Both the position numbers and the translations under genes were made by a program. DNA of 23,755 nucleotides, taken from assembly GCA_013298595.1 (NCBI GenBank), contig JAAFIG010000050.1:1-23755 (forward strand), in the 5' to 3' direction. The DNA comes from Deinococcales bacterium. Lineage in GTDB: Bacteria > Deinococcota > Deinococci > Deinococcales > JAAFIG01. Shown here one piece after another: positions 3,816-19,871 of the stretch. Below the pieces are notes generated by a model. That model was not told the DNA's origin, did not search any database, and saw only the letters and a list, made by a program, of their open reading frames with translations. Position 1 is the first letter of the stretch. Each line of letters begins with the position of its first letter.

Positions 3816-5060
3816 TTAGCGTCCAACACCTGTGGCGATATTGAGAGGTTTCTCGAGTTTAAGCCAAATAAATTCGTTTGGATCTTTGATATCTGCGCCG
3901 CGTCCACCTTTGCCATCGTAGTTGTTGTCGTTAGCAACCAGAATAGTATTTTTATCCAGCACAATCACATTTTCTATAGTCACAAATGGAAAAGTGAAGA
4001 CACCATTTTGCGTACTTGGGGCGAGCTTATTGGCATCTGAGATATTCATTAAATCAGCAACCAATTCTTTTTGGGCAACACCGCTCGAGTCTTTTTTTGA
4101 AAGATCAATTTTGTAAACACGTTTGAATTTTGCCATTGCTCCCGAACCACCATCACGTTCGATTACAAGGTACTCGTTATCGTTAATCACTGCCATATCA
4201 CCAATGGCATTCGCTGTATCCTCAAGTTTGTAGTACGCAGCGATACCCACGTATTTTTTACTGGTAACATCAAATTCATGGATTCGCAATAAACCAGCTG
4301 TGTCGCCCAGAACTGTTCCCTCGAGTAAAGCGTAGAATTTAGTTTTGTTTGGGTTGTGGGCTAATCCTTCATATCCTCTGGAAGCATTGAGGTTTGCACT
4401 CGAGGCTTGTCCTGGGTTGGGTGATGCGGCAAGTACACTTGGGTTATTTGGCGAGCGCACAAAGTCTTTGCTTGGGTCTTTGCCTGCGCCATAATCTGGG
4501 GTTGGAATAGGTGCAGATAAAACCTTACCAGTGGTATCTACGTTAATTAAAAATGGTCCGAATTCATCACCAATCCAGATGGTGCCATCTTGAGCTACTA
4601 CAAAACTTTCAACATCAAAATCCGAACCTGTTAATAAACGTTCTGGTGTGTTTTCGTTGACAATAGCAAATGGGATTTTCTTATCAGGGTCGCGCAATTG
4701 AATAAAATTATTAACAGCTACCGTACCAGTGCCACCACTTGAGGTTTTTGGGCTGAGGGTGAGGTTGTATAAACGCAATAAGAAATCGGCGCTGTTGTAC
4801 TTGGCACCAAAGCCATTATCGGGTAGTACCCAGTAATTGCCATTGGCTGCAAATTGAATACCACTAAAGCCTTGTACGGGTTGGCTTGGAAAACGTGGTT
4901 CGGCAGCTTTGAGACCATTTCCGCCAAACTGTCCACTGGCAGGACCAGTCGCAAACGTATCAGCTGGTAGCAAACTAAAACCAATTAACTCGGTTTTGAT
5001 GCTTTGAGCGATAGCGGCGGTGGTGGCAAGAACTCCAAAGGCAATTAAGATTTTTTTCAT
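3816..5060 (-). CDS. Secreted esterase-like-activity-of-phytase family protein
   Basis: This 414-aa exported protein begins MKKILIAFGVLATTAAIAQ, a Sec signal with probable cleavage after AIA or AIAQ. Diagnostic segments include GFSGIQFAANGNYWVLPDNGFG, split by short gaps, then GSDFDVESFVV, IWIGDEFGPFLINVD, YEGLAHNPNKTKFYALLEG and IGDMAVINDNEYLVIERDGG. These fit the beta-propeller Phytase-like family (PF13449). Members are proposed to act on phosphate esters, but catalysis is poorly established. A TTG start at 5090 in the same frame is possible, but ATG 5060 opens directly into the signal peptide. It ends in its own hairpin terminator. The upstream region (5061-5134) carries 11-bp-spaced TTGAC-like repeats. 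Context with ugp and phoX supports a role in phosphate acquisition. Confidence 0.75.
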   Translation of the reverse strand: MKKILIAFGVLATTAAIAQSIKTELIGFSLLPADTFATGPASGQFGGNGLKAAEPRFPSQPVQGFSGIQFAANGNYWVLPDNGFGAKYNSADFLLRLYNLTLSPKTSSGGTGTVAVNNFIQLRDPDKKIPFAIVNENTPERLLTGSDFDVESFVVAQDGTIWIGDEFGPFLINVDTTGKVLSAPIPTPDYGAGKDPSKDFVRSPNNPSVLAASPNPGQASSANLNASRGYEGLAHNPNKTKFYALLEGTVLGDTAGLLRIHEFDVTSKKYVGIAAYYKLEDTANAIGDMAVINDNEYLVIERDGGSGAMAKFKRVYKIDLSKKDSSGVAQKELVADLMNISDANKLAPSTQNGVFTFPFVTIENVIVLDKNTILVANDNNYDGKGGRGADIKDPNEFIWLKLEKPLNIATGVGR

Positions 5061-5101: not shown

Positions 5102-5134
5102 TGACAATTACTTGACATGAGATATTGGTAACAC

Positions 5135-5827
5135 TTATTGGTTGGGTTGCCTAGTGAAAAATCGCATTTGGTTTTCGTCTTTGTGCAGATGCACCCAAAA
5201 CACCAAACGATGATGCTCGAGGTAAGATTCGATTAAGACAGCTTCGCATTCTATGGGGAATAAACCTGCTTGGCTGTTAGGTGGTGGCTGTTGAACCCAG
5301 ATGACTCTGCCGCCGTGGTTTAAAGCCAACTCAAAGGCTGTGGGGCTTGGTGTATCAAGTTCTTGAGCTTCGAGCTGTTGAACCAATGTAAACCCAGGGT
5401 GTTCTAACGCTGCTCGTTCGGTGGCGTACAATTTTTCTGCCTTGTAGTGTTGTTCGCGCAACCGACGTAAAAACAGCGATCCATGAGTCGCAATCCATTG
5501 GTTTTTCTCGAGTTCGCGTTGTTCGGGGCTGAATGTTTGCCGATGACTGGCATAAGCCTCGAGCAGATTTTCCCAGTCTTTGATGCTATGCGGGTAGCGT
5601 TCTGCAAAAAAAGGATACCGCTGCTGATTATTTTCGACTTGACTGAGGTCTACCATTTCGATTTGGTCTATGGAATCACACAAATTCAGTAAACGAATTC
5701 TGGTTTTAGGACTGACGTTTTTCCACTTGAGTTCAATGGTTTTGCTACTGGGCAGCAAAACATGATGCTCGAGTAAATGGTTGCGTCGAGCGTGTTCGCT
5801 GACAGCTATTTTGACCAAGATTTTCAT
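5135..5827 (-). CDS. Unknown protein, last gene of the compact four-gene operon
   Basis: This 230-aa protein has no family I recognise. A beta-strand-rich start (MKILVKIAV) leads to a basic segment, then a long, very hydrophilic helical region (about residues 75-155, rich in E, K, R and Q, e.g. REQHYKAEKLYATERAALEH) that could form a coiled coil. It ends in a beta-rich C-terminus (GGRVIWVQQPPP ... LVFWVHLHKDENQMRFF). There is no signal peptide or membrane segment, so it is probably cytoplasmic. The start has GAGG about 6 nt upstream. The preceding small proline-rich gene ends only 1 nt before this ATG, so translation is almost certainly coupled. Confidence 0.8.
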   Translation of the reverse strand: MKILVKIAVSEHARRNHLLEHHVLLPSSKTIELKWKNVSPKTRIRLLNLCDSIDQIEMVDLSQVENNQQRYPFFAERYPHSIKDWENLLEAYASHRQTFSPEQRELEKNQWIATHGSLFLRRLREQHYKAEKLYATERAALEHPGFTLVQQLEAQELDTPSPTAFELALNHGGRVIWVQQPPPNSQAGLFPIECEAVLIESYLEHHRLVFWVHLHKDENQMRFFTRQPNQ

Positions 5828-5828
5828 G

Positions 5829-5978
5829 TCAGCCTCGGTAAGTTTTTAGTTTGGTGGTTGTGGCGGTTTTTTTTGGTGGTTCTGGGTATGGTAGGACTTC
5901 ATCAGGTTCAACAGGTTTTTCTCGAGGTGGCATCGGTGGAATGCGTGGTGGTTGCGGCAAAGGCATTGGTTTAATCAT
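5829..5978 (-). CDS. Small proline-rich protein (49 aa) in the unknown operon
   Basis: An ATG at 5976-5978 overlaps the 3' end of the zinc-ribbon gene by 8 nt and reads 49 codons to TGA at 5829-5831, one nucleotide before the next ATG. Fifteen of 49 residues are proline (segments such as MPLPQPPRIPPMPP and PYPEPP), with a K/T-rich tail ending KLKTYRG. The exact packing between two genes on the same strand is strong positional support. The Shine-Dalgarno is weak (ATAGG about 13 nt upstream), consistent with coupling. There is no signal peptide. It may be an extended linker or binding peptide for SH3-like partners; the function is unknown. Confidence 0.6.
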   Translation of the reverse strand: MIKPMPLPQPPRIPPMPPREKPVEPDEVLPYPEPPKKTATTTKLKTYRG

Positions 5979-6552
5979 AAAAACCAATGCCTATCAGCAG
6001 GGCTAAAGTGTCTTTGACAGTACCGCCAACAATCAGTAATGGTTCGCGTTCTTTAGCGTCCATATGCGGGTGAATCACAGCGCCGTACAGAATCACCGAA
6101 TCGAGTTTACGTAAATTAGAAATTCCAGGGTGTTCGATTAAACCACTGATATCGACATCGCCGATACCTTGAATAATTGTGTGCATAACACCTTTTTGCT
6201 CGAGATTTGTGGCAAATCTATACCCTAGTGTCATGCCTAGTTTTGCCTCGAGGTACTTGCTTGCATCTTTTTTGCCACGAGTCTGGTAAATCATCAGGTA
6301 TTGTCGTTCGCAATCTCGACAAATAACGGTGTCTTCAAATTGCCGACGAGGTGCATTGATGGTGTTGCAGTAATCACAATGACCAAGCCTGAGATTGGGC
6401 ATAAATTCTTCATCCAGTTGAGTGTTTAGACGCTGCCAAAGTTTACGTTCCTGTTTATCGAAATCTTCTACGCGCACAACTAATTTGCGTAAAGGATTTT
6501 TCAGTGTTCGCCCCCACAGTTCTGGCTTATCCAATGTTTCGGCAATAATCAT
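5971..6552 (-). CDS. Unknown zinc-ribbon protein in the compact operon
   Basis: This 193-aa protein has a four-cysteine zinc ribbon: CDYC at residues 59-62 and CRDC at 78-81. A helical region (about 25-55) precedes it, and the C-terminal half is hydrophobic and glycine-rich (GVMHTIIQGIGDVDISGLIEHPG ... LLIVGGTVKDTLALLIGIGFYD, shown in parts). A TTG further upstream (6579) is in frame, but ATG 6552 has AAAGG 5 nt ahead. It also forms an ATGA overlap with the reading frame downstream of the first gene's TAG. The 3' end overlaps the proline-rich gene by 8 nt. I recognise no family; a metal-stabilised nucleic-acid or protein-binding module is a guess. Confidence 0.8.
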   Translation of the reverse strand: MIIAETLDKPELWGRTLKNPLRKLVVRVEDFDKQERKLWQRLNTQLDEEFMPNLRLGHCDYCNTINAPRRQFEDTVICRDCERQYLMIYQTRGKKDASKYLEAKLGMTLGYRFATNLEQKGVMHTIIQGIGDVDISGLIEHPGISNLRKLDSVILYGAVIHPHMDAKEREPLLIVGGTVKDTLALLIGIGFYD

Positions 6553-6701
6553 AATGACCTTTCTAATTCGGCGGTGCAAATTGTGTATTTCAGTAAGGAT
6601 CTCGGGTGCGGGAACTCCTTACCAATTTGTTGAATGCGTTGCTTGATAACACTGGCACGAATGGGGGATTGCTGCTGAGTTTTTAGCGTTGCTCGATAAA
6701 C
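6549..6701 (-). other. Open in-frame 3' extension after a TAG, lacking any start codon
   Basis: Directly after the TAG (6702-6704) of the preceding gene, the same frame stays open for 50 codons to TGA at 6549-6551, which overlaps the next ATG as ATGA. The frame has no ATG, GTG or TTG codon. It encodes a protein-like helical stretch (YRATLKTQQQSP, ASVIKQRIQQIGKEF, SLLKYTICTAELERSL). Most simply, the first gene was once, or still is, 170 codons long with a nonsense codon at 120. Alternatives are TAG readthrough or a sequence error. Chance openness over 50 codons is possible. Confidence 0.5.
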
Positions 6702-7061
6702 CTAGAGTAATTTGCTGGGTGTGTTGCCACTGTATTCTGCGAGTAACTTATAGGTGTAGGCATTATGCCAACGAATACAAGTCAGAAATCCATCACTGAT
6801 ATCGGGTGAAATTGTTTGATCTGGTTGGCTGTGTATAGAAAATGTAGATGCCACGAAATCACCATCGGGTAACTGAAAAATCTGAACAAGAATGTCGGTA
6901 ATAAAAGCGAGGGTAAGCACAATTGGTGCGCCACAATCTGGTCGTTCCTCGAGCATAGATTGGCGGATAGTGTGTTCAAAGGCATGTTGTGTGATGTGGC
7001 TTTGTAAAGTACGAAATAATGGAACGCTACTGGGTATGAGTTCTGGGGGAGCGAAAATCAT
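6702..7061 (-). CDS. Unknown protein, first gene of the compact operon, possibly cut short by TAG
   Basis: A 119-aa product starts at ATG 7061, preceded by AAAGGA with a 4-nt spacer. A TTG at 7076 is in frame but lacks this signal. It starts MIFAPPELIPSSVPLFRTLQ, continues through a predicted strand-rich middle (IVLTLAFITDILVQIFQLPDG) and ends EYSGNTPSKLL at TAG. The same frame continues for 50 more codons into an ATGA overlap with the zinc-ribbon gene, so the functional protein may be about 170 aa. No family is recognised and there is no signal peptide. Upstream lie TTGACA elements (7117-7122 and 7083-7088, minus strand). Confidence 0.7.
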   Translation of the reverse strand: MIFAPPELIPSSVPLFRTLQSHITQHAFEHTIRQSMLEERPDCGAPIVLTLAFITDILVQIFQLPDGDFVASTFSIHSQPDQTISPDISDGFLTCIRWHNAYTYKLLAEYSGNTPSKLL

Positions 7062-7095
7062 TGTTCCTTTTAGCAAAAGATTGTCAAGGCTGTGT

Positions 7096-7138
7096 AACTT
7101 ACCGTGTTAAATACGATGTCAAATAAATGAAGTAAGTT
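7096..7138 (-). promoter_or_regulatory. Candidate promoter and inverted repeat before the unknown operon
   Basis: A perfect TTGACA (minus strand, 7117-7122) is followed 15 nt later by TAAGTT (7096-7101). The region is bracketed by an inverted repeat, AACTTAC (7096-7102) and GTAAGTT (7132-7138). A second TTGACA lies at 7083-7088. The spacer is shorter than ideal, so promoter assignment is tentative. Confidence 0.3.
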
Positions 7139-7201
7139 GGTTTCCTAATCGTATGAAAAAGGTTGAAAGCTCGAGAATATTGGCACAAAAGGATAAAGAT
7201 T

Positions 7202-7220
7202 TGTCAGGGCGTTCCTGACA
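7202..7220. promoter_or_regulatory. Inverted repeat TGTCAGG-N5-CCTGACA
   Basis: A perfect 7-bp inverted repeat lies about 50 nt before the start of the 7270 gene. The left half (TTTGTCAGG at 7200-7208) recurs twice upstream of phoX (9859-9867 and 9900-9908), so it may be an operator half-site. It could alternatively be a small leader hairpin. Confidence 0.35.
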
Positions 7221-7269
7221 CATTGAACCTATTTTTTTGCAAGAATTTCGATTCGCAATGGAGTCTGGT

Positions 7270-7743
7270 ATGAACTGGGAATCTCTGGACATCACAAAAA
7301 TTCGTTTGGATACTACGTATAGACAATCGCTGTACGCTCATCAATTCAAACTCTATCCAATTTTTGCTTTTCGTGCCCAGCGTTTTGTGGTGCTGACACC
7401 GATTCGTTTGTCGCATCAGCCACAAGCCCTCGAGGTGATTGAATTACTACCTCATGACCCAATGCTGATCGTGGATGCCCAATGCCCCGAACCAGTACTG
7501 ACCCCAGATGATGCAGAAAAACCATTTGCTTTGGTGAAACACATGGATTTTTTTGTTTATGCCCTCGAGAACCACCAAGATAAAGCTGTCTCGGCATTGC
7601 GAGAAGTTGGTTTCTTAGTGATTCGGGTTGTACCAGGTACGGACGCAGAATATGCTCAAGTTTTTGAATGGCTGAATCAACGCCCCGAGCCTTTAATCCA
7701 ACCGAATTTGTTTGGTGCTCCCGAGGACTCTGTGCTGGTGTAA
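7270..7743 (+). CDS. Unknown cytoplasmic protein
   Basis: This 157-aa product starts at ATG 7270 (MNWESLDITKIRLD), chosen because GGAG (7260-7263) lies 6 nt ahead. In-frame TTG 7237 and ATG 7258 are less well placed. It has a beta-rich core (FAFRAQRFVVLTPIRL, PMLIVDAQCPEP) and a helix followed by a strand (DKAVSALREVGFLVIRVVPG). It ends in a proline-rich tail (EPLIQPNLFGAPED). There is no signal peptide or membrane segment, and no family is recognised. It is monocistronic and ends at a strong bidirectional terminator facing phoX. The upstream inverted repeat suggests regulated expression. Confidence 0.7.
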   Translation: MNWESLDITKIRLDTTYRQSLYAHQFKLYPIFAFRAQRFVVLTPIRLSHQPQALEVIELLPHDPMLIVDAQCPEPVLTPDDAEKPFALVKHMDFFVYALENHQDKAVSALREVGFLVIRVVPGTDAEYAQVFEWLNQRPEPLIQPNLFGAPEDSVLV

Positions 7744-7806
7744 ATTTTTGACCACGATTGCCTGAGTAGGCTCGAGGATTTTTTGCTTTGAGTTTGCGTC
7801 ATAAAA

Positions 7807-7836
7807 AAGATCAAAACCCAAACGGGTTTTGATCTT
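7807..7836. terminator. Bidirectional terminator between the 7270 gene and phoX
   Basis: A perfect 13-bp stem AAGATCAAAACCC (7807-7819) pairs with GGGTTTTGATCTT (7824-7836) across loop AAAC, with A/T-rich flanks, between convergent genes. Confidence 0.85.
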
Positions 7837-7851
7837 CTCTTGAGCATGGAT

Positions 7852-9816
7852 TTAAGTGCCAATAATGCCGCCATCTGTTTTCTTAATGGCTATCACGCTT
7901 GGTCTTGGAACGCCAACGCCATCTGGGAATAACGAGACGGGCTTCTCAACGGTGCCACCTTCGCCTGGATGCTGAATGGCTGCAAAGAAATTTTTATTGT
8001 CTGGTGTAAAAATTGGACCACAGACTTCTGCACCTTTGACGGTGCTCATAAATTGCTGGACTTGCCCTCGAGCTGCGCCTCTGGTTGGGACAACAAAGAC
8101 ACCATCATTGGCTTTGAGTGTGCTGTTTTCCATACCATCGGTGGCTATCCACATGTTACCAGCGTTATCAAACGAAATATTATCTGGGGTGGCAACTGCT
8201 GAAACTTTTTCTTTGGCAAAACCAGCAAAGAAAGTACTTGGGTCGTTTGGATTGCCACAAACCAAAAATAAACTCCATTTGAATTTGGTAGCAGCCGCGT
8301 CGTTACCTTCCTCGAGCAACTCGAGAATATGCCCATCTTTATTATCGGCTCGAGGGTTGGCAGCATCTATTTGCGCGGCAGTGCGGCGGCTGTTATTGGT
8401 TAATACACAATAAATTGCGCCAGTCACGGGGTTGCGTTCAAAGTCTTCGGGGCGATCCATTTTGGTTGCACCAAGTAAATCGGCAGCCTGACGGGTTTTA
8501 ATGCAGATATCGGCTTGGGTAGCAAAACCATTTTCAGCAGTTAATTTGCCATTACCAACCACCATTGGTACCCATTCGCCTGTACCATCGGCATTGACTC
8601 GAGCTACGTACAAGGTGCCTTCGTCGAGCAAATCCATGTTGGCAGCACGGTTGCTGGCATTAAAACGACCTTTGCTGACAAATTTGTACATGTAATCAAA
8701 GCGTTCATCATCGCCCATGTACATAACTACGCGCCCATCGGCGGCTAGGCTAGTCTCTGCGCCTTCGTGCTTAAAACGCCCTAAGGCAGTGCGTTTTTTC
8801 GGAGTCATGGTTGGGTCGTAAGGATCAATTTCAACAATAAAACCATAACGGAATGGTTCGTTTGGATTTGCCTCGAGATTAAAGCGTTCGTAATGATTCT
8901 CCCAGACACGTCCAGAAGCCTTGGCAGTCATACCATAACGGGCATGAAGTGCTTTGATATTGGCATCTTTAACATTGTCGTTAAAAGCAAAGTACTGATT
9001 AAAATTCTCTTCAGCTGTTAAAATCGTACCCCACGGTGTGGTACCACCCGCGCAATTATTGAGCATTCCCAAAACGCGTTTACCCGTGGGGTCAGCTTTG
9101 GTTTGCAACAACGGATGCCCAGCCGCCGGACCTGTAATTTCCATTGGTGTGGTTGCCGTAATTCGGCGGTTGTACCTCGAGACAGCTTGGTATTCGATAT
9201 TGCCGCTGTTATCCCGAAAAACTTGCACAATTGTGCCACCATGAGCAGCCAATTCAACATCCACTTGTTCTTTGGTTGCTTTGCCAGCAGTATACCCAGC
9301 AAACATCAATTCTGGATTGGTGTACTCGTGATTTGCCCATAGCAATGCCTGATTCGAGCGTTTACTCTGAAAACCTGGCAATGGCAAAAATGAAACATAA
9401 TCGTTGTTGTAACCAAAGCTGGCTTCTTGGGTTTTAGCATCAAAAGTACCCACATCAAAGCGCTTTGCACCTCGAGCAATCGGGTCGCCCCAACGAATCA
9501 CCACATTCGATTCGTACCCCTGAGGCAACAAGGTTTTATCCTCGGTGGATAAACTGATTGGCTTAAAACCAAGACCACTATTTTGTGCAGCCACAGGCAG
9601 TAAACTCGAGACTCCTGAAAGCAGCATCAGACCAGTAAAACCACCTTTGAGAATACTGCGGCGATCTATGGCTTCTTCGATAATATTTTTGCTGTACAAA
9701 TTCTCTGATTGGTTCAGCACAGGGGTGGCGCAAGCATCACCGCATTTCCAATGACAGGTTGCCGAAGTGCGATTGCCAGAAGTATCAAATTCGCTGGTGT
9801 CTAACATCAGTTTCAT
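7852..9816 (-). CDS. phoX: PhoX-family alkaline phosphatase, Tat-exported
   Basis: This 654-aa PhoX (DUF839) enzyme hydrolyses phosphomonoesters outside the cytoplasm; the family uses an iron-calcium cofactor. A twin-arginine signal at about residues 52-78 (DRRSILKGGFTGLMLLSG ... PVAAQ) implies folded, cofactor-loaded export. Family marks are NHEYTNPE (162-169), NNCAGGTTPWG with Cys255, and ILTAEENFN with Glu269/270, the likely metal ligands. An unusual cytoplasmic-side stretch, CHWKCGDAC (21-29), precedes the Tat motif. The start has AAGGAG 6 nt before ATG. The 149-bp divergent region shared with the kinase gene carries repeated TTTTGTCAGG and an 11-bp-spaced CTGA repeat, consistent with phosphate control. 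Confidence 0.88.
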   Translation of the reverse strand: MKLMLDTSEFDTSGNRTSATCHWKCGDACATPVLNQSENLYSKNIIEEAIDRRSILKGGFTGLMLLSGVSSLLPVAAQNSGLGFKPISLSTEDKTLLPQGYESNVVIRWGDPIARGAKRFDVGTFDAKTQEASFGYNNDYVSFLPLPGFQSKRSNQALLWANHEYTNPELMFAGYTAGKATKEQVDVELAAHGGTIVQVFRDNSGNIEYQAVSRYNRRITATTPMEITGPAAGHPLLQTKADPTGKRVLGMLNNCAGGTTPWGTILTAEENFNQYFAFNDNVKDANIKALHARYGMTAKASGRVWENHYERFNLEANPNEPFRYGFIVEIDPYDPTMTPKKRTALGRFKHEGAETSLAADGRVVMYMGDDERFDYMYKFVSKGRFNASNRAANMDLLDEGTLYVARVNADGTGEWVPMVVGNGKLTAENGFATQADICIKTRQAADLLGATKMDRPEDFERNPVTGAIYCVLTNNSRRTAAQIDAANPRADNKDGHILELLEEGNDAAATKFKWSLFLVCGNPNDPSTFFAGFAKEKVSAVATPDNISFDNAGNMWIATDGMENSTLKANDGVFVVPTRGAARGQVQQFMSTVKGAEVCGPIFTPDNKNFFAAIQHPGEGGTVEKPVSLFPDGVGVPRPSVIAIKKTDGGIIGT

Positions 9817-9908: not shown

Positions 9909-9974
9909 TATAAGTACCTTCGGTTTTTGCTCGAATCGTTTTCTTTATCTGACTCGAGTTAGACTGTGGTTGTT

Positions 9975-11066
9975 ATGGCGTTATCTGAACAAAATTGTGT
10001 CCATTGCGGTTCGAGTCAACCAAGTACTGCAACCACTTGCCAATTGTGTGGTGCCAGTCTGATTACAGATGTTGTATTAGCTGCTAACACACAAGTCGGT
10101 GCGTTTATGCTCGAGGGTGTGCTAGGGCGTGGTGGTTTTGGAATTACCTACAAGGCTCGAGATTTAATGTTTGATGTGGTGGTTGCTTTAAAGGAATTAT
10201 TTCCAGACGGTTTAGTGACCAGAGCTGCTTCTGGGGCTGTGCAAGTGAGTGCTTTGGCACAAGCAGATTTTGAACGAGTGAAAAAACAATTTACTTTAGA
10301 AGCCAATACTTTGCAAAAAATTAAGCATCACTCGAGTACCAGATTTATAGGACTTTTTGCTATCAATAACACCTTGTATTTAGCGATGGAATTTGTCGAA
10401 GGTGAAACCCTCGAGGCACGAATTGAACGTGGGGCGTTACTGAGTTTTCAAGAAGCCCAAGCAGTGCTTGATGATGTACTTGGTGTGCTCGAGGAAGCCC
10501 ATCATTTAGGTTTACTGCACCGTGATATCAAACCAGCTAATATTATTTTAAAAGCTGGAGGTGCAAGCCTGATTGATTTTGGTAGTGGGTTACGCTTTGA
10601 AAAAAACCGAACAATTCAAGTTTCTCAGCGCTTATTAACCCCAGAGTACGCACCACTCGAGTTATACGGGCAAGCTGTGCGCCTTGCTCCTGCTGCTGAT
10701 TTATACTCATTAGCTGCAACCATGTACGAAGCTATTTCGGGAGTACGCCCAGCAAGTGCCTTAGATCGTGTTAATGGGGCTGTGCTCGAGTCCTTAGCAA
10801 AGTACCAACCAAACATTGCTGCTGGCTTTATAAAAACCATAGACGCAGCTCTCGAGTTACGAGTAGATGCCAGACCGCAATCTGTGCTCGAGTTTCGGCA
10901 ACGTTTAGGGGCAAAACCAAGTATTCCTGTAACACCTGTGGCGAGTGCTGTACCAAATCCACCAAAAGTATCGAACCCTGTTCCTACGCCAAGGGTAGTT
11001 TGGTTGTTCATTATTTTAGCATCTGGTGTATTACTGGCTTTAATACTGTTACGAAATTTTTTCTAA
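9975..11066 (+). CDS. Zinc-ribbon Ser/Thr protein kinase with C-terminal membrane anchor
   Basis: This 363-aa Hanks-type kinase has an N-terminal zinc ribbon (C8, C11, C22, C25) and then a kinase domain from about residue 43. It has the P-loop GRGGFG (51-56), Lys73 in VALKE, HRDIKPAN (182-189), DFGS (201-204) and TPEYAPLE in the activation segment. All catalytic residues are present, so it should be active. A proline-rich linker (about 315-338) leads to one membrane helix (VVWLFIILASGVLLALILL), placing the kinase on the cytoplasmic face. ATG 9975 is preferred over GTG 9966. TAGACT lies 9 nt upstream and there is no Shine-Dalgarno. It shares domain order and motif wording with the kinase at 18405-19871. 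Its substrate is unknown. Confidence 0.88.
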   Translation: MALSEQNCVHCGSSQPSTATTCQLCGASLITDVVLAANTQVGAFMLEGVLGRGGFGITYKARDLMFDVVVALKELFPDGLVTRAASGAVQVSALAQADFERVKKQFTLEANTLQKIKHHSSTRFIGLFAINNTLYLAMEFVEGETLEARIERGALLSFQEAQAVLDDVLGVLEEAHHLGLLHRDIKPANIILKAGGASLIDFGSGLRFEKNRTIQVSQRLLTPEYAPLELYGQAVRLAPAADLYSLAATMYEAISGVRPASALDRVNGAVLESLAKYQPNIAAGFIKTIDAALELRVDARPQSVLEFRQRLGAKPSIPVTPVASAVPNPPKVSNPVPTPRVVWLFIILASGVLLALILLRNFF

Positions 11067-18404: not shown

Positions 18405-19871
18405 TTAAATCAGCCCAACTGCTTGGAGTAAACCAGCAATCATTAAAAGCCAAAAGCCATCCCAAAAATGATGTGCTTGTAAGTGACTGGCTCGAGATGG
18501 GAAAAGATAAGCACCCAGCAATAAAGGATAAGTAAAAACCGTGGTCAGTAAAAACCAGATAAGCAATGGGGTATCATTAAATGAACTGGTTTTGCCGTAT
18601 ACCAAAGCCACAACAACAATATCGATGCCTGCTGCAAAAGTGCAGATCAGTAAGCGACGTACAATGCTGATGGGTTTGATTAAACCATGCCATAAGCTCA
18701 GCGGAAATTCAAGCAACGCTGTGTAAAGCCATGTGAGCATAGAAATAGTTAGTACCGTTGTAAAACCCGTGTTGATCACTTGCAGCCAAGGAATGGGTTT
18801 CAGCGTCAATGATATGGTAAAAATGAGATATCCAAAGGCAACAAAAATCAGAAAATCATAGTTATAAACGGCAAAATTTGGTTTTGTGGTTGGTATTTGC
18901 TTTGGGTTACTCTGTTTTTGTTTTGATGGGGCTTGTTGTGTGGTTGTGTTGCGTTGCAAAGCCAGTGCAGCAAAGGCTTTGGCATCTTTAGGACGATCAG
19001 CAACTTGTAACGATAAACCGTGTTCGATGGCTTCGCGCAAGCCAATACTAAAATTGGCTTTTAATGGAATCAGTTTCGCCCCCGACATGCGATCCACAGC
19101 GGTTGGTGGTGCATTGCCTGTTAAGGCATGATACAGCGTGGCAGCCAAAGCGTAAACATCGGTGGCAGTGGTGACTCGAGCTTCGGAGCTGTACTGCTCG
19201 AGTGGGGCGTATCCGGGTGTGACCATACGTGTGTGGCGCATGGTACGCCCAGCCGTAAAATTTCGAGCACTGCCAAAATCAATCAGCACAGCTCGTCCGT
19301 CGCCAGTTAAGAACACATTGGCGGGTTTGATATCGCGGTGGAGTAAACCTGCTGCGTGGACTATCTCGAGGGCATCGCAGAGTTGCTGGGCGATATCGCG
19401 CACCTCCTTGGTTTTGAGTTTTCCCAGTTTTTGAATTCGAGCCTCGAGGGTTTCGCCTTCGAGTAATTCCATGACCATATAGACGGTGTTGTTGGTTTCA
19501 AAAACCGCGTACACATCCACGATATTGGGATGATTTTTGCCGCGCATAAATTGCTTGAGGATTTTGTGTTCTTCAAGAAATTTTGTTTTTAACTCGTCAA
19601 ATTCAATAACAGTGATGGTGGTGGATGGAAGAACCATCTCTTGGATACGGTTGCTACCTTCAGGGAAGAATTCTTTAATGGCAACACTTTTTTGGCTCGA
19701 GTGCGCTCGGTAGGTAATGCCAAAACCACCTTGTCCGAGAAAATCATCGATGGTGTACTGCTCGAGTTGCGTGCCTTTGGCAAGGTAAGCACTGGTCAGG
19801 GGCGAACCGCAGGTTGGACAGATGGTATCCAACGCAGCCACCTTCGAGCCGCAAGCCAAGCAGAGGTTCAC
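18405..19871 (-). CDS. Zinc-ribbon Ser/Thr protein kinase with multi-pass C-terminal membrane domain
   Basis: This 488-aa Hanks-type kinase has a zinc ribbon (C4, C7, C18, C21), GQGGFG (46-51), Lys66 in VAIKE, HRDIKPAN (178-185), DFGS (198-201) and TPGYAPLEQY, so it appears catalytically complete. A Q/K/N/T-rich linker (about 310-333) precedes a C-terminal domain of about five membrane helices. The start is GTG 19871, overlapping the GNAT stop as GTGA, with translational coupling. Its CTCGAG copies cluster in the kinase part. The 678 bp encoding the linker and most of the membrane domain have none, perhaps because that sequence is less constrained or was acquired separately. It is a paralogue of the 9975 kinase. 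Confidence 0.88.
   Translation of the reverse strand: MNLCLACGSKVAALDTICPTCGSPLTSAYLAKGTQLEQYTIDDFLGQGGFGITYRAHSSQKSVAIKEFFPEGSNRIQEMVLPSTTITVIEFDELKTKFLEEHKILKQFMRGKNHPNIVDVYAVFETNNTVYMVMELLEGETLEARIQKLGKLKTKEVRDIAQQLCDALEIVHAAGLLHRDIKPANVFLTGDGRAVLIDFGSARNFTAGRTMRHTRMVTPGYAPLEQYSSEARVTTATDVYALAATLYHALTGNAPPTAVDRMSGAKLIPLKANFSIGLREAIEHGLSLQVADRPKDAKAFAALALQRNTTTQQAPSKQKQSNPKQIPTTKPNFAVYNYDFLIFVAFGYLIFTISLTLKPIPWLQVINTGFTTVLTISMLTWLYTALLEFPLSLWHGLIKPISIVRRLLICTFAAGIDIVVVALVYGKTSSFNDTPLLIWFLLTTVFTYPLLLGAYLFPSRASHLQAHHFWDGFWLLMIAGLLQAVGLI

What the first reader, a model, noticed from the sequence alone, without database searches (positions are those of the whole stretch)
5135..7061. Compact, translationally coupled operon of four unrecognised genes
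Four minus-strand frames are packed without gaps: ATGA overlap, 8-nt overlap, then a 1-nt gap. They encode an unknown protein with an in-frame TAG, a zinc-ribbon protein (CxxC-x15-CxxC), a 49-aa peptide that is 31% proline, and a 230-aa protein with a long helical middle. Such packing usually marks subunits of one complex made in fixed ratio. No component matches a family I know, so this is the best candidate for an undescribed system in the window.
Basis: partly seen in the sequence, partly recalled or inferred. Interest (0 to 1): 0.62.

Follow-up and report, generated by a model that had tools for sequence, protein, structure and literature searches.

The report
Orphan accessory gene cluster in Deinococci
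A short run of four unfamiliar genes in one Deinococcus-type bacterium is real but looks like an ordinary set of lineage-specific accessory genes, with no evidence that they form a new molecular machine.

Summary
The four minus-strand frames exist, but one central detail fails. Codon usage supports coding for gene 1 up to its TAG (119 aa), gene 2, gene 3 and gene 4. The 49 codons after the TAG do not look coding. So gene 1 most likely ends at the TAG, 149 nt before gene 2, and the "ATGA overlap" is probably not real. The tight unit is genes 2-3-4. Such packing is common here: 39% of same-strand neighbours lie within 10 nt. No component matches Pfam, NCBIfam, PHROGs, PADLOC or PDB. Genes 1 and 2 were not found in the related genomes searched; gene 4 was not found in any of 110 other genomes of the phylum, including the sister species. 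Its only relative is a plasmid protein in Thermoanaerobacterium (core 29% identical), which has no partner there. The genes lie in a 2.7-kb segment absent from the sister species, between blocks that are separate in it. Base composition and CTCGAG density are native, so this is not a very recent import. Best reading: a lineage-restricted accessory cassette, possibly of plasmid origin. "Subunits in fixed ratio" is unsupported by co-occurrence. Noticed on the way and more striking: CTCGAG occurs about 6 times per kb throughout this bacterial family.

The parts
6702..7061 (-). gene 1: 119-aa protein ending at TAG (6702-6704); unknown family
   Evidence: ORF and AAGGA-type SD before ATG 7061; codon usage coding-like; no family match
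6553..6701 (-).
   Evidence: codon score -0.161, 0.8 percentile of coding segments
5971..6552 (-). gene 2: 193-aa protein with a CxxC-x15-CxxC zinc-ribbon motif
   Evidence: GAAAGG Shine-Dalgarno 5 nt before the ATG; coding-like; only sub-threshold matches centred on the ribbon
5829..5978 (-). gene 3: 49-aa protein, 31% proline
   Evidence: 8-nt overlap with gene 2; codon usage at the 57th percentile of coding segments; Pro content unmatched in 1,445 ORFs of similar length
5135..5827 (-). gene 4: 230-aa protein; residues 105-209 related to a Thermoanaerobacterium plasmid protein
   Evidence: coding-like; tblastn E 9e-4 in the plasmid collection, pairwise E 3e-11, 29% identity
7202..7220 (.). 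perfect inverted repeat TGTCAGG-N5-CCTGACA in the gap between gene 1 and the divergent ORF 7237-7743; candidate operator or stem-loop
   Evidence: terminator-like scan; no second perfect copy in the window or in loci from elsewhere
5119..7845 (.). segment without a match in the sister species G001, bounded by conserved blocks (phytase-like gene side, PhoX side)
   Evidence: alignment to G001 ends at 5118 and resumes at 7846 on a different G001 contig

Best explanation
A lineage-restricted accessory cassette. Genes 2-3-4 are one tightly packed transcription unit; gene 1 lies 149 nt upstream on the same strand and ends at its TAG. The cassette sits in a 2.7-kb segment at a synteny break between ordinary metabolic blocks. 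Shown: coding character, packing, absence from close relatives, native composition, and a plasmid-borne relative of gene 4. Inferred: descent from a mobile element long enough ago to have ameliorated. Also inferred, and weak: a small nucleic-acid-associated accessory function, resting only on the zinc ribbon of gene 2 and on gene 4's relative, whose immediate plasmid neighbours are a tyrosine recombinase and an HU protein.
For: No relatives of gene 2 in 60 related genomes, of gene 4 in 110 other genomes of the phylum, or of gene 1 in 12 related genomes. None in genome contigs of 85k species for genes 2 and 4, in IMG/VR or in phages. Gene 4 core matches WP_233432566 on plasmid pMU3262, with shared WI-x2-HGS, ERAA-x-E-x-P and CEAV-x-I-x-SYL motifs. 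The synteny break lies around the segment. GC is 0.42-0.46 against 0.45 genome-wide. CTCGAG is at 4.15/kb, and 23% of equal-sized genome windows hold as few, whereas long stretches without any CTCGAG are mostly low-GC and look accessory.
Against: No integrase, transposase or att-like repeat was identified beside the segment. A single distant relative of one gene is thin support for plasmid origin. Genes with no relatives can also arise in place. The collections are finite, and the scans with short peptide patterns find close relatives only.
Confidence: 0.55

Rival explanations
1. The proteins of genes 2, 3 and 4 (perhaps also 1) form one new complex made in fixed ratio by translational coupling.
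For: 8-nt overlap and 1-nt gap; coding-like codon usage in all three; no known family.
Against: No second genome carries the set. The one relative of gene 4 stands alone. Close packing is routine here. Single-sequence models were useless (pLDDT 36-38).
Confidence: 0.15
2. Remnant of a prophage or integrative element, with gene 1 cut short by a nonsense mutation.
For: Segment unique to this genome; orphan genes; a plasmid-borne relative of gene 4; in-frame TAG followed by an open but non-coding-like tail.
Against: No PHROG match; nothing in phage or IMG/VR collections; no recombinase or structural gene among the window ORFs examined.
Confidence: 0.2
3. An unrecognised defence or toxin-antitoxin cassette.
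For: Small orphan genes in a variable segment.
Against: No PADLOC family at a meaningful score; the best, Cas10a at E 0.013, covers the zinc-ribbon region. The neighbours are transporters, phosphatases and kinases, not a defence island.
Confidence: 0.07
4. Chance open frames, not genes.
For: No homologues for genes 1-3.
Against: Codon usage of all four (gene 1 to its TAG) exceeds every sampled off-frame segment; gene 4 has a relative.
Confidence: 0.03

Closest known systems
Hypothetical protein WP_233432566 (TSAC_RS14210) on Thermoanaerobacterium saccharolyticum plasmid pMU3262
   Same: C-terminal core aligns with gene 4 residues 105-209 at 29% identity, sharing WI-x2-HGS, ERAA-x-E-x-P and CEAV-x-I-x-SYL
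   Different: Not flanked by relatives of genes 1-3, and none were found on that plasmid; the N-terminal halves barely align; function unknown
Zinc-ribbon domains (Pfam zinc_ribbon_6 PF14599 and similar)
   Same: CxxC-x15-CxxC pattern in gene 2
   Different: Score 10.3 against a cut-off of 27; the rest of gene 2 matches nothing

Membership tests
Conserved multi-gene system (operon encoding one complex) | same genes adjacent in several independent genomes | tested here: not met
   not found in any other genome searched; the relative of gene 4 has no partner genes
Conserved multi-gene system (operon encoding one complex) | overlapping or abutting reading frames | tested here: met
   genes 2-3-4 only; gene 1 excluded by the codon-usage test of the tail
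pMU3262 WP_233432566 protein family | shared C-terminal core | tested here: met
pMU3262 WP_233432566 protein family | shared function or genomic context | tested here: inconclusive
   function unknown; contexts differ
Known phage protein families (PHROGs) | significant profile match | tested here: not met
   best E 0.29-0.42
Known defence systems (PADLOC) | significant profile match | tested here: not met
   best E 0.013, in the zinc-ribbon region

The most novel reading that the evidence does not exclude
Genes 2-3-4 encode a previously undescribed three-part complex (zinc-ribbon protein, proline-rich peptide and helical protein) derived from a plasmid maintenance or transfer function.
Probability: 0.1. 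Interest if true: 0.45.

Novelty: new member of a known kind. Interest (0 to 1): 0.22.

Why it matters
If the cassette is a complex, it would add an unknown accessory function to Deinococci. As things stand it is one of many orphan accessory gene clusters. Its main use is methodological: a codon-usage test separates real gene ends from chance read-through frames, and CTCGAG density in this family may serve as a clock for how long a gene has been resident.

Tried and rejected
Single-sequence AlphaFold2 models of genes 2 and 4: pLDDT 37.8 and 35.8, not used for fold search. Weak hits of gene 4 residues 145-215 in other genomes (E 0.01-0.09; 13 of 61 genomes with a hit including its own, about 6 expected by chance): rejected as near chance. 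PDB hits to prM protein (E 0.057), ubi-d4 (E 3.7) and a designed PPR protein (no stretch passing on its own): rejected. Promoter and terminator scans gave fewer hits than shuffles. No Rfam match in the window. TAG recoding: not supported, because the tail after the TAG is not coding-like. A simple insertion into an intact ancestral site: not demonstrable, because the flanking genes lie on different contigs and in other contexts in G001. The divergent ORF 7237-7743 as a conserved partner: no match in the three other genomes of the family.

Full report
Observation. The window is a whole contig of a 4.58-Mb genome. The Deinococci-specific RecJ C-terminal domain in the window's recJ gene supports a Deinococci origin. 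The four minus-strand frames are present as described, with one important correction. I built a codon model from ORFs of 150 aa or more in 400 kb of the same genome and scored each part. Gene 1 up to the TAG, gene 2, gene 3 and gene 4 all score above every sampled off-frame segment. The 49 codons after the TAG score -0.161, the 0.8 percentile of real coding segments and within the off-frame range. A 49-codon open frame is not rare by chance (12% off-frame, 22% at random). Gene 1 therefore most likely ends at the TAG, and the packed unit is genes 2-3-4. A nonsense mutation in a decaying gene 1 remains possible.

Is the packing unusual? No. Among 255 same-strand neighbours in the sampled genome, 27% overlap and 39% lie within 10 nt (longest-ORF starts, so overlaps are somewhat overcounted). 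What is unusual is gene 3: 31% proline, where none of 1,445 ORFs of 40-60 aa reaches 30%.

What the proteins are. No Pfam, NCBIfam, PHROG or PADLOC family gives a significant match; the sub-threshold hits of gene 2 centre on the CxxC-x15-CxxC ribbon. PDB sequence searches gave nothing credible. Single-sequence structure models failed. In whole genomes, gene 2 was absent from 60 relatives including the sister species G001 and family members G002 and G003. A gene-4 profile found nothing in the 110 other genomes held for the phylum, and gene 1 nothing in 12 relatives. Genome-contig, IMG/VR and phage searches were empty. These pattern scans reach close relatives only.

The one lead. Gene 4 residues 105-209 match a hypothetical protein on the 110-kb Thermoanaerobacterium plasmid pMU3262 (tblastn E 9e-4, pairwise E 3e-11, 29% identity). 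The shared motifs (WI-x2-HGS, ERAA-x-E-x-P, CEAV-x-I-x-SYL) make homology convincing. On the plasmid the gene lies between a tyrosine recombinase and an HU gene, and a scan of open frames across the plasmid finds no relative of genes 1, 2 or 3. So gene 4 belongs to a small, unnamed family, one other member of which is carried by a plasmid, and it is not tied to the other three genes.

Surroundings. The phytase-like gene (3816-5060) and PhoX (7852-9816) are conserved in G001, but alignment to G001 stops at 5118 and resumes only at 7846, on different contigs with different neighbours. The 2.7-kb segment between, with the four genes and the divergent orphan ORF 7237-7743 (no match in the rest of the family), is specific to this genome. 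The neighbours are transport, phosphatase and kinase genes, not a defence island or prophage. GC is native. CTCGAG density, 8 sites in 1,927 bp, is within the normal range, which argues against very recent arrival.

Verdict. A real, lineage-restricted accessory cassette, perhaps ultimately from a mobile element. The inference of subunits in fixed ratio cannot be supported, because the set has not been found anywhere else and the one relative of gene 4 stands alone. How the proteins work remains inference: a zinc-ribbon protein and a mobile-element-associated helical protein suggest a nucleic-acid-associated accessory role, at low confidence.

Noticed on the way. The palindrome CTCGAG occurs 27,159 times in this genome, about 5.9 per kb, against 15 copies of the reversed control, and at 6.0-6.5 per kb in the three other genomes of the family (from rounded genome sizes). 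In 424 kb it is the most enriched 6-mer, 29 times the base-composition expectation. It is about equally dense inside and outside genes, with exponential-like spacing, and there are 2,140 copies in ORFs where synonymous shuffling gives 236. Over 13 kb aligned to G001 at 73% identity, 55% of sites are conserved against 19.5% for 6-mers of the same composition. This resembles the highly iterated palindromes of cyanobacteria, where HIP1 runs near one per 1,000 nt and is tied to orphan methyltransferases (PMC4390886). I found no report of a CTCGAG case in three searches of the open library. Neither C5 methylases (PF00145) nor Eco57I-type methylases (PF07669) showed an orthologue shared by the whole family among the best matches compared; other methylase classes were not searched.

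Noticed in passing
whole window (147 sites) and the whole genome; family-wide: CTCGAG occurs about 6 times per kb (27,159 copies in 4.58 Mb; 26,619-28,178 in the three other genomes of the family; similar density in two genomes of a second family, 3.6/kb in another and 0.3/kb in a fourth of that family), 29x base-composition expectation, 9x synonymous-shuffle expectation, and 55% of sites conserved between species at 73% identity against 19.5% for control 6-mers. It looks like a highly iterated palindrome, several-fold denser than HIP1 of cyanobacteria (about 1 per kb, PMC4390886). No family-wide C5 or Eco57I-type methyltransferase was found; other classes not searched.
   Followed up: yes
424 kb sampled from the own genome: Many other palindromes are almost absent: AGGCCT, CCGCGG, CGGCCG, GGCGCC and GGGCCC have 0 copies where 110-164 are expected on both strands, and GAGCTC has 2.
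   Followed up: partly
own genome, stretches of 1.2 kb or more without CTCGAG: Most CTCGAG-free stretches are low in GC (0.30-0.39) and appear to carry accessory genes (surface, pilin-like and unassigned proteins), so CTCGAG density may mark how long a segment has been resident.
   Followed up: partly
7202-7220: Perfect inverted repeat TGTCAGG-N5-CCTGACA between the divergent gene 1 and ORF 7237-7743; no other perfect copy in the window or in loci fetched from elsewhere. Candidate operator.
   Followed up: partly
7237-7743: 168-aa orphan ORF divergent from the cassette, no family match, no match in the three other genomes of the family.
   Followed up: partly
9966-11066 and 18405-19871: Two serine/threonine protein kinases, each with a weak N-terminal zinc-ribbon match and a hydrophobic C-terminal stretch, within 9 kb of each other.
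   Followed up: no
L024 11233-11661: Beside the phytase-like gene in family member G002 lies an ORF that resembles, from memory and untested, the DUF4157 peptidase-like domain linked with extracellular contractile injection systems.
   Followed up: no
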